Assembly: GCA_003135995.1 (NCBI GenBank)
Contig: PNBM01000337.1
Span: 1 to 11,971 of the forward strand
Reading direction: 5' to 3'
Length of the DNA: 11,971 nt
Source: Ignavibacteriota bacterium
GTDB taxonomy: Bacteria > Bacteroidota > Ignavibacteria > Tepidaquicellales > Tepidaquicellaceae
Shown here: piece by piece, positions 1,920-11,971 of the stretch
Numbering within the stretch: position 1 is the stretch's first letter
How the letters are laid out: every line of letters begins with the position of its first letter
The notes under the pieces: model-generated
Told to the model about the DNA's origin: nothing
What the model saw: only the letters and a program-made list of their open reading frames with translations
The model's database searches: none
Position numbers and translations under genes: made by a program

Positions 1920-2939
1920 TTATTTCTTTTTTTTCTTGTCTTTTTTTAACTTCTTATTTCCTTTTTTCTTCTTAACTTCTTTTAACTTCTTTAACTTCTT
2001 AACTTCTTTTAACTTCTTAACTTCTTTTTTCTTCTTTGCTTTTGCCTTAAATTTTTCAAGAACATTTTTTACTGTGATACCAATATCGGCAGGAGATTCG
2101 GCAACTACTATTCCGCATTCATTCATTACTTTAATTTTTTCCTCTGCAGTTCCTTTTCCGCCTGAAATAATAGCACCTGCATGTCCCATTCTTCTTCCCG
2201 GAGGAGCGGTTTTTCCAGCGATAAATCCGATTACGGGTTTCTTAACATGTTTTTTTATAAAATATGCGGCTTCTTCCTCAGCATTTCCGCCGATTTCACC
2301 AATCATTAAAATTGCTTCTGTATTTTTATCATTATTAAATAATTTTATAGCATCGAGGAATCTTGTACCGATAACGGGGTCGCCGCCAATTCCGATGCAG
2401 GTTGATTGCCCGATTCCGAGTTTAGTAAGCTGGTCAACTGCTTCATATGTTAAAGTTCCGCTTCTTGAAATTACGCCGACTTTTCCTTTCAGGTGAATAA
2501 ATCCCGGCATTATTCCTACTTTGCATTCTCCCGGAGAAATTATTCCGGGACAGTTCGGTCCTATAAATCTCATCGTGTGTCCATGAGTATTTTTGCTCTG
2601 AACGTAATCATATACTTTTATCATATCCTTAGTCGGAATACCTTCTGTTATGCAGACAACAAGATTAACGTCCGCATCCGTTGCCTCAATAATTGCGTCA
2701 GCAGAGAAAGCAGAAGGAACAAAGATAATTGAAACATTTGCTTTTGTAGCCTCAACAGCTTCGCGGACAGAATTAAAAACGGGAATTTTATTTTGAAAAA
2801 GAGTACCGCCTTTACCCGGAGTGACACCCGCTACCACATTAGAACCATATTCAATCATTTGCGTTGTATGGAAAGTCCCTTCGGAACCGGTTATTCCCTG
2901 CACAACAATTTTTGATTTTTTATTAACAAGTATGCTCAT
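1920..2939 (-). CDS. sucD: Succinate-CoA ligase (ADP/GDP-forming) alpha subunit with Lys-rich tail
   Basis: The alpha subunit binds CoA and carries the phosphohistidine in the TCA-cycle conversion of succinyl-CoA to succinate with nucleotide phosphorylation; it works with SucC, which is not in this window. The CoA-binding Rossmann part has [11 protein letters not shown] (15-25) and GKGGT (42-46). Further landmarks are [20 protein letters not shown] (127-146), SRSGTLTYE (159-167), [10 protein letters not shown] (183-192) and the active-site His in GHAGAI (H253). The core ends near F297, matching the usual length of about 290-300. Residues 298-339 are an extra tail in which 27 of 42 residues are Lys, built from KEVKKL and KKL units encoded by tandem repeats. 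The ATG lies 15 bases after the lipoprotein stop, so the two genes probably share a transcript. No Shine-Dalgarno sequence is visible. Confidence 0.95.
1948..2024 (-). repeat. Tandem GAAGTT-containing repeats encoding the SucD tail
   Basis: The hexamer AACTTC (GAAGTT on the coding strand) occurs seven times, starting at 1948, 1974, 1984, 1993, 2001, 2011 and 2019. From the coding-strand 5' end the spacings are 8, 10, 8, 9, 10 and then 26 bases. 8+10=18 and 8+9+10=27, so the copies form two in-frame blocks that alternate the EV and KL readings. A run of pure 8-base units would rotate the frame into AGT-TAA, a stop. The tract is almost purely purine on the coding strand. This is the pattern expected from slipped-strand expansion constrained to keep the frame. 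Confidence 0.85.
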
Positions 2940-10596: not shown

Positions 10597-11971
10597 TTAG
10601 ATTACCCTGACCGGCATAATCAATTCCATGAAATCTTCATTCTGTAACTGCTCAGTAGGCTTTGCAATCGAAGCTTTCGAAGGAGTTAAAAAAGAAAATA
10701 TCACATCCGAAGTTTCAATCTGCGCAAGGCAATCGAGCAGGTAACTGATGTTGAATGCAACATTAAAAGATTCTTTATCGAAATCAACTTCTTTCTCCTC
10801 GCTTATAAAAGAACAATCAAGTGTTTCTTCTCCTTCCGCTCCTATTTCTGGGTTATCAGCCATTATAACCATCGAATCGCTTTTAATCTCACATTTTACA
10901 CGTTTAGTAATCACATCAGCGAATATCAAAGCTCTTCTCAGAGAATTTTGAAATTCGATTTTACTTACTTTAAGGATTTTATCATTATCTTTCGGGATAA
11001 CCGTTTCATAATTCGGGAATGTGTCATCTATGAGTTTCGAAAATATTACAACATTACCGAATGAAATTTTAATCAAAGTATTATCGAACTCGACAAGCGC
11101 GGGTTCATTGTTATTCAGTCTTATAACCATTTCGCAGGTTTTAAGCGGAACTATGAAATGGTCATCGGTCGGGTTTTTATGCGAAAAATTCTTTGCTATA
11201 ATTTTACTCAGTCTGAAACCATCGGTTGCGACAAATCTCAGTTCGTCTTTTCTGATATCAAAAAACACGCCTGCCATATTTCTCCTGATTTCGTCATACT
11301 TTACGGAATGTCTGACTTTCGAAAGAAATCTTTTAAGAATTGCAGGACCTATTTCAAATTTATTCAATTCGTTTTTCTCTTCCGGTAACGGAAAATCTTC
11401 AACGCTTTCACCGAAAAGCGAATATTTGTTTTTATGTTTACCTCTTATAAAATGGACAGTTACTTTATTTTTTGAATCTGCTTCTATTTTTAATTTAATT
11501 CCGCTTCCTGTTAAATAATCAACATGTTTCTTGTAAAGTTCATTTATAGAATCTTTCAAATATTTCAGTGATGATTCCGATTTTTCTTCTATGGTTTCTT
11601 CAATATATATTAATCCCTTGTCAATCAGGACTTCAAGTTCATTCTTTAAATCCAGACCTAAATATTCTTTAAAATATAAAATTCGTTTATCCGCATCATA
11701 TTGAAGTTTGCTGATAAAATAATTCACGCGTGCTTCTTCATTATCCTGTTTAGATACCAGTGCTTTGTTAAAATCTATTGCAACATCGGCAAAATCCACT
11801 TTAGTAACGAGAGATTTTACCAAATCCAGGAGTCTTTTTCCCGGAATCGCAATTTCACCATCTTCACTCCCTTCCACCTTGATTGAAGTTTTGATAAAAA
11901 TTTCAAGGTCGGAAGCCACCATATTGAGTTCATTCTTTTTCAGTTCAAACATGATATTATCCAATATTGGT
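10597..11971 (-). CDS. dnaN: DNA polymerase III sliding clamp (beta subunit), 5'-truncated by window, with a large insertion
   Basis: DnaN is the ring-shaped processivity clamp. The frame is open through the right edge: 11965-11970 reads Pro-Ile, so the visible start is ...P-I-L-D-N-I-M-F-E-L, the family's usual LPIL.N segment, and TTG at 11962-11964 is an internal Leu. About 25-30 N-terminal codons are outside. Counting that Leu as 1, landmarks are ASDLEI (17-22), IPGKRLLDLVKSL (40-52), VEDFPLPE (188-195), FVATDGFRLS (244-253), FSKLIDDTFPNYETVIP (308-324), FNVAFNISYLLDCL (400-413) and the C-terminal MPVRV (450-454). The visible part alone is 455 residues, whereas whole clamps are about 366-380. 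The excess is an insertion of about 100 residues (roughly 53-154, bases 11503-11808) in domain I. recF follows after 26 bases. Confidence 0.93.
   Translation of the reverse strand, partial: PILDNIMFELKKNELNMVASDLEIFIKTSIKVEGSEDGEIAIPGKRLLDLVKSLVTKVDFADVAIDFNKALVSKQDNEEARVNYFISKLQYDADKRILYFKEYLGLDLKNELEVLIDKGLIYIEETIEEKSESSLKYLKDSINELYKKHVDYLTGSGIKLKIEADSKNKVTVHFIRGKHKNKYSLFGESVEDFPLPEEKNELNKFEIGPAILKRFLSKVRHSVKYDEIRRNMAGVFFDIRKDELRFVATDGFRLSKIIAKNFSHKNPTDDHFIVPLKTCEMVIRLNNNEPALVEFDNTLIKISFGNVVIFSKLIDDTFPNYETVIPKDNDKILKVSKIEFQNSLRRALIFADVITKRVKCEIKSDSMVIMADNPEIGAEGEETLDCSFISEEKEVDFDKESFNVAFNISYLLDCLAQIETSDVIFSFLTPSKASIAKPTEQLQNEDFMELIMPVRVI

What the first reader, a model, noticed from the sequence alone, without database searches (positions are those of the whole stretch)
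11503..11808. Roughly 100-residue insertion in domain I of the DnaN sliding clamp
Between GKRLLDLVKSL and the strand pair IKLKIEADSKNKVTVHFIRG, ordinary clamps have only a short turn. Here about 100 highly charged, probably helical residues intervene (for example KLQYDADKRILYFKEYLGLD and SSLKYLKDSINELYKKHVDY). The frame stays open and conserved clamp sequence resumes on both sides, so it is a real in-frame insertion, not an assembly break. It has no intein-like Cys/His splice residues. An added module on the clamp rim could bind a lineage-specific replication partner or alter ring packing. I do not recognise the domain.
Basis: partly seen in the sequence, partly recalled or inferred. Interest (0 to 1): 0.7.

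Follow-up and report, generated by a model that had tools for sequence, protein, structure and literature searches.

The report
Extra folded domain in DNA clamp
Some Ignavibacteria have a small extra domain built into the ring that holds DNA polymerase on DNA; it resembles a module found in unrelated bacterial proteins and should sit on the ring face where finished DNA leaves, but what it does there is not yet known.

Summary
The insertion is real: 101 residues (window 11497-11799, minus strand) between helix alpha2 and the next strand of DnaN domain I, where E. coli has a 5-residue turn. Of 29 genomes held for this family (mostly named Ignavibacteria), 15 carry it, in 7 of 16 genera. In a model of a close relative the clamp core is intact (rmsd 1.6 over 368 residues against a solved clamp); a relative's insert modelled alone folds confidently (pLDDT 87), with no significant match to solved or viral structures.

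Its core (short helix, YD...L-x-x-K-G hairpin, two helices) resembles a module inside unrelated proteins: binding-protein lipoproteins, type III restriction helicases, an ABC-toxin-like giant. A profile of non-clamp copies alone ranks six clamp inserts first among 29 whole genomes (not the window's own, linked through them); the reversed profile finds none. Pfam, NCBIfam and PHROGs do not name it.

By ring symmetry with E. coli C333 the site lies on the N-terminal (DNA-exit) face. Two sister lineages have shorter, different insertions at the equivalent turns of domains II and III. The insert is under purifying selection but changes fast and has a patchy history. Best reading: an N-face docking appendage; the function is inferred, not shown.

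The parts
10597..11970 (-). dnaN, beta sliding clamp, 457 residues read; about 27 N-terminal residues lie beyond a scaffold gap
   Evidence: open frame; Pfam PF00712/PF02767/PF02768; 'nn' at L001 2873-2874; closest complete relative P0039, 484 aa
11806..11841 (-). helix alpha2 of domain I, after which the insert leaves the clamp core
   Evidence: helix 71-82 in the model of P0039, offset 27 from the window read
11497..11799 (-). the insert, 101 residues; 79-104 in the relatives seen
   Evidence: alignments, coordinates; the insert of relative L002 modelled alone: pLDDT 86.6, pTM 0.79
11674..11703 (-). beta-hairpin of the recurring module (QYDADKRILY)
   Evidence: strands 117-119 and 124-126 of P0039; Y118 in 37 of 40, L125 in 33 of 40 and G129 in 36 of 40 non-redundant carriers; the four rows of this lineage have E at G129
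11605..11655 (-). first long helix of the module
   Evidence: helix 133-149 of P0039, low confidence from 147 on
11506..11589 (-). last helix of the insert, leading back to the clamp strand
   Evidence: helix 155-182 of P0039, low confidence up to 157
11479..11496 (-). clamp strand that resumes after the insert (KLKIEA)
   Evidence: strand 186-191 of P0039; aligned with E. coli E87-L92
11011..11346 (-). clamp domain II
   Evidence: PF02767, residues 209-320, E 5.4e-23
10606..11004 (-). clamp domain III
   Evidence: PF02768, residues 323-455, E 1.5e-17

Best explanation
SHOWN or strongly supported: many clamps of one Ignavibacteria family carry a folded domain in the alpha2-to-strand turn of domain I, and the rest of the clamp is ordinary. 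The core of the domain resembles a small module (short helix, beta-hairpin with YD....L..KG, two helices) seen in lipoproteins, type III restriction helicases and a very large ORF, so it most likely came by domain shuffling. INFERRED from ring pseudo-symmetry: the module stands on the N-terminal (DNA-exit) face, two copies per dimer, away from the polymerase and loader face. INFERRED mechanism: it is a permanent docking appendage that lets a protein ride behind the polymerase on the newly made duplex, a built-in counterpart of the modified N-face of PCNA. In most carriers a basic neck would lie near the channel exit while the insert as a whole is acidic. Rough odds: inserted member of a recurring module 0.85; N-face position 0.8; docking role 0.4.
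For: Distribution and homology of the inserts. Clamp core: rmsd 1.6 over 368 residues to 8dt6. Insert of L002 alone: pLDDT 86.6, pTM 0.79. Module elsewhere. Profile A10, made only of non-clamp copies, against 29 family genomes: the six best of 32 listed matches are clamp inserts (E 7.2e-9 to 0.015), the first other match is 0.018; the reversed profile's best is 0.24, none in DnaN. hhalign probability 97.7, E 1.4e-12 for that one comparison. Site next to the equivalent of E. coli C333, which PMC4320747 puts on the N-terminal face (passages). Other insertions at the equivalent turns of domain II (11 clamps) and domain III (3 clamps). Insert dN/dS 0.05-0.17 in the four pairs with usable dS. Neck net charge mean +3.5 over 18 residues in 40 carriers; -0.3 over the 8 residues of the turn in 23 non-carriers.
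Against: No partner was found; three replisome families show no covarying change. The insert evolves much faster than the rest (mean identity 0.26 against 0.57), and unrelated stretches fill the equivalent turns in sister lineages, so the turn may simply tolerate insertions. A10 finds the clamp insert in only 7 of 15 carriers at E 1 or better and not in the window's genome, whose insert is linked only through related clamps (25-29 bits). The window's lineage lacks the conserved G129 and has a less basic neck. The non-clamp copies were picked with profiles that held clamp inserts, which is partly circular; the first two finds were E 1.6e-6 and 2.7e-4 per genome in 395 genomes, so the second alone is not significant. 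No model of a non-clamp copy was made.
Confidence: 0.5

Rival explanations
1. Tolerated passenger: the N-face turn touches neither polymerase nor loader, so insertions there cost little. The module stays folded but has no specific partner, and drifts, is lost and regained.
For: Lineages have different insertions at the three pseudo-symmetric turns, never two in one of the 51 clamps aligned. Fast evolution. A tree of neighbouring genes needs at least 3 changes and rejects one clade of carriers, p-AU 0.0008. No covarying partner.
Against: dN/dS 0.05-0.17 in four pairs and conserved core positions. Length is 100-104 in 85 of 87 carrier rows, where a neutral stretch would be expected to vary.
Confidence: 0.3
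2. Electrostatic guard: acidic appendages on the N-face keep the ring oriented or stop non-productive contacts of that face with DNA, while the basic neck steers the exiting duplex.
For: Whole insert net charge mean -4.6 (range -8 to -2) with a neck at +3.5 in 40 carriers. The domain II and III insertions of sister lineages look rich in D and E by eye.
Against: Sliding clamps are negatively charged anyway (section 1.2 of PMC9690074). The window's lineage has a weaker neck. No DNA-binding test was possible.
Confidence: 0.15
3. Shield against phage or plasmid proteins that bind the clamp, which would explain the fast change of the insert.
For: Amino-acid identity of insert against rest in same-genus pairs, at the extreme 0.48 against 0.97 for L006/L009. 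Excess synonymous difference in the insert in 2 of 6 tested pairs (uncorrected p 4e-6 and 6e-4) suggests exchange of the cassette.
Against: dN/dS is well below 1 where it could be measured, four of the six pairs show no synonymous excess, no site test for positive selection was run, and known inhibitors bind the other face (recalled).
Confidence: 0.1
4. Intein, assembly chimera, or merely a divergent part of domain I.
For: The window ends at a scaffold gap just upstream.
Against: 15 of 29 genomes carry it. No Cys, one His. The core of a close relative aligns fully with solved clamps without it.
Confidence: 0.01

Closest known systems
Bacterial beta sliding clamp (DnaN), solved examples 8dt6, 7rzm, 1mmi
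   Same: All three domains and the complete core fold; a dnaN-recF-DUF721-gyrB order (gene names recalled) is kept in the related loci that reach that far
   Different: A 101-residue insert where E. coli has a 5-residue turn; the solved clamps shown match on both sides of it only
N-face of PCNA as a site of protein modification (section 1.2 of PMC9690074; ubiquitin and SUMO there are recalled)
   Same: Works like: an extra small domain presented on the face away from the polymerase (inferred)
   Different: Here the domain is part of the chain and permanent; fold searches with the insert gave no significant match
The same module in PBP_like_2 lipoproteins (L120, L138, L139 and others) and type III restriction helicases (L110, L118 and others)
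   Same: Profile similarity, hhalign probability 97.7; by alignment the same order of short helix, YD hairpin and two helices
   Different: There about 60 residues, in the clamp 79-104 with longer helices and a variable loop; the hosts share no function; no structure of the non-clamp copies was made

Membership tests
Bacterial beta sliding clamp | Three Pfam clamp domains in order | tested here: met
   49.7, 81.9 and 63.9 bits, all over the cut-offs
Bacterial beta sliding clamp | Clamp fold over the whole chain apart from the insert | tested here: met
Bacterial beta sliding clamp | Forms a head-to-tail dimer ring around DNA | not testable with these tools
   no prediction of complexes was on hand
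Recurring YD-hairpin module | Found by a profile made from non-clamp copies only | tested here: met
   for the clamps of relatives: six inserts rank first in 29 genomes, 7 of 15 carriers hit at E 1 or better, reversed control none
Recurring YD-hairpin module | The window's own insert found by that same profile | tested here: not met
   no DnaN match in G000 at E 1 or better; it is joined only through related clamp inserts
Recurring YD-hairpin module | Same three-dimensional fold in clamp and non-clamp copies | not tested
Intein | Cys or Ser nucleophile at the start, His-Asn type end, splicing domain (features recalled) | tested here: not met
   0 Cys, 1 His, begins V and ends I; no splicing family among the Pfam hits at E 1
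A catalogued family for the insert (Pfam, NCBIfam, PHROGs) | One family matched by most of 15 inserts | tested here: not met
   no family matches more than 3 of 15; best E 0.0006 (TrsD, 2 of 15), 0.0043, 0.0015

The most novel reading that the evidence does not exclude
A bacterial sliding clamp has captured a roving, unnamed module and uses it as a permanent recruitment domain on the DNA-exit face, a bacterial solution to what eukaryotes do by modifying the same face of PCNA; the alpha2-to-strand turns of all three domains are a general insertion point where lineages of this order have each built an N-face appendage.
Probability: 0.3. Interest if true: 0.8.

Novelty: new variant of a known kind. 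Interest (0 to 1): 0.6.

Why it matters
Sliding clamps are among the most size-constrained replication proteins, and the C-face is their main hub for partners (PMC9690074 section 1.2). A folded domain on the N-face would show that this face can be used in bacteria and gives a handle (pull-downs, deletion) to find what rides there. The module itself, seen in unrelated hosts without a name in the libraries searched, would be a new entry for domain catalogues, and the insertion suggests that it can move as a unit.

Tried and rejected

Bad runs: one search used wrong strands, replaced; one search stopped at L119; one search picked some wrong frames, replaced. Rows dropped: L003 (cut end), L091 (stop), L056, L059 and L064 (partial); 55 of 63 non-redundant rows went into the structure alignment. 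That the module occurs in other phyla is only my recollection and was not tested.

Full report
WHAT IS THERE. The minus-strand frame 11970-10597 is dnaN: all three Pfam clamp domains are present, and the best solved clamp matches residues 1-54 and 165-454 with a gap between. The gap is the finding. Against E. coli DnaN (MG1655) the turn after helix alpha2 of domain I is 5 residues (P83-E87) in E. coli and 105 here. The insert proper is residues 58-158 of the read, window 11497-11799, with no Cys and one His. The window stops at an 'nn' gap in the contig, so about 27 N-terminal residues are missing; beyond the gap the contig continues with the start of the gene.

IT IS SHARED. Of 29 genomes of the same family, 15 carry a homologous insert of 79-103 residues and 14 do not; by genus 7 of 16. 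Of the 120 listed relatives in the large protein collection, 72 carry it, a list ranked by similarity to carriers. Inserts differ strongly (mean pairwise identity 0.26, against 0.57 for the rest of the clamp, 40 non-redundant carriers), yet profiles trained without one lineage find that lineage above the best of 1000 shuffles in four of four tests: for the window's lineage E 5e-8 to 6e-7, best shuffle 0.12.

THE MODULE OCCURS ELSEWHERE. A profile of 26 inserts searched in 395 genomes of the phylum hit 6 at E 1e-3: two DnaN, a 2427-aa ORF (E 1.6e-6), an 897-aa helicase (E 2.7e-4), and two ORFs of 1126-1129 aa that I judge chance. With the two new copies added, 9 of 395 genomes were hit, among them another helicase and three lipoproteins. 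A mixed profile hit 36 of 395 genomes at E 0.01; 30 of these at E 1e-4 or better, one of them DnaN of G015, and six only at 0.002-0.009, probably noise. I looked at 18 of these loci (with 84 and 93): seven look like type III restriction helicases (one tested: PADLOC REase_III E 3.9e-137); nine look like lipoproteins with the module close behind the lipobox (by eye; three tested: PF12849 E 1.1e-18 or better; two judged only by likeness to a third); one is the large ORF (ABC_toxin_N E 2.2e-27); one has no Pfam hit at 0.01. Roughly the module reads L-P-x..-K-[VLIF]-x-[YF]-D-x5-L-x-x-K-G-x-[ML]-T-x-x-E-[KR]-x-x-L, with many exceptions.

A CLEANER TEST. The copies were picked with profiles containing clamp inserts, so I made a profile of 13 non-clamp copies only and searched all six frames of the 29 family genomes. 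Of 32 listed matches at E 1 or better, the best six are the clamp inserts of G014, G007, G020, G015, G005 and G018 (E 7.2e-9, 3.9e-6, 3.8e-4, 8.9e-4, 0.003, 0.015); the first other match is 0.018; a seventh clamp is at 0.56, and eight of 15 carriers, the window's genome included, are not hit in DnaN. The reversed profile gives 5 matches, best E 0.24, none in DnaN. Profile-profile comparison gives probability 97.7. With profiles of one class at a time, the lipoproteins find 34 and the helicases 50 of 86 clamp inserts above the best of 2000 shuffles; the clamp profile finds 5 of 7 lipoproteins and 5 of 5 helicases. Selection of the copies inflates these counts. Pfam, NCBIfam and PHROGs give no family for the inserts, nor do Pfam and NCBIfam for the non-clamp pieces scanned.

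WHERE IT SITS. The insertion point lies between E. coli A86 and E87. The equivalent turn in domain III holds C333 (L331-K-C333-E-N). [quoted passage not shown] The six domains of the ring are pseudo-symmetric (PMC9690074 section 1.2), so the insert should stand on the N-face. This is inference from symmetry, not from coordinates. The strand that follows leads to E93, which with L98 forms the rim contact of Pol IV (PMC4564189, passages).

THREE TURNS, THREE LINEAGES. In 51 clamps aligned with E. coli, the turn is long in domain I in 15 (83-107 residues), in domain II in 11 (16-27; L030 of family f2 and the L075-L084 loci, called f2-type by me), and in domain III in 3 (34-35, genus g2); none has two. 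The domain II and III stretches look acidic and unstructured by eye. So the N-face turn looks like a preferred place for insertion in this order.

EVOLUTION. On the clamp tree without the insert columns, carriers need 2 changes and one clade is not rejected (p-AU 0.26). On a tree of the neighbouring genes RecF, GyrB and DUF721 (30 rows) they need 3, and one clade is rejected (p-AU 0.0008). Either an early gain was followed by clean losses, or the insert moved between lineages. In four pairs with usable dS, insert dN/dS is 0.165, 0.052, 0.131 and 0.054, core 0.023-0.037; in the other four pairs insert dS could not be estimated. In 2 of 6 pairs tested, the insert also differs more at synonymous positions (uncorrected p 4e-6 and 6e-4), which hints at exchange of the cassette; four pairs show none.

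MECHANISM. The domain is kept under purifying selection in an essential protein, at a surface inferred to be away from polymerase and loader, with a neck of net charge +3.5 (18 residues; the 8-residue turn of non-carriers has -0.3) and a whole-insert charge of -4.6. The reading that fits most of this is a docking or guarding appendage behind the polymerase. Against it: no partner was found. Y-family polymerases occur in 28 of 29 genomes, DnaE in 26, delta in 27; the misses fall on carriers and non-carriers, and the open-frame lengths overlap. The passenger reading keeps real weight.

NOVELTY. Searches of open-access papers (listings only, 12 of 210 in the last) showed no report of a folded insertion in a bacterial clamp; this does not cover subscription journals. 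I class it as a new variant of a known kind: the clamp is ordinary, the built-in domain and the recurring module are not.

Noticed in passing
window 1920-2939 (-), tail coded at about 1920-2037: The SucD-like protein (name recalled) ends in about 45 lysine-rich residues ([23 protein letters not shown]...), coded by imperfect repeats of 18, 36 and 45 bp.
   Followed up: partly
L030 and L075-L084, DnaN domain II: f2-type Ignavibacteria clamps have 16-27 residues in the alpha2-to-strand turn of domain II, 9 in E. coli.
   Followed up: yes
L025, L026, L027, DnaN domain III: Clamps of genus g2 have 34-35 residues at the same turn of domain III, beside the C333 equivalent; 5 in E. coli.
   Followed up: yes
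L120-L149, outside DnaN: The module lies close behind the lipobox of PBP_like_2 lipoproteins and inside type III restriction helicases, and the pieces scanned have no Pfam family.
   Followed up: partly
L006 and L009, DnaN insert: Two same-genus clamps are 97% identical outside and 48% inside the insert, with excess synonymous difference, as if the insert had been swapped.
   Followed up: partly
contig C123 just beyond window 11971 (L001 2873-2874): A two-base 'nn' scaffold join cuts the N-terminal part of dnaN; two more such joins follow within 1.4 kb.
   Followed up: yes
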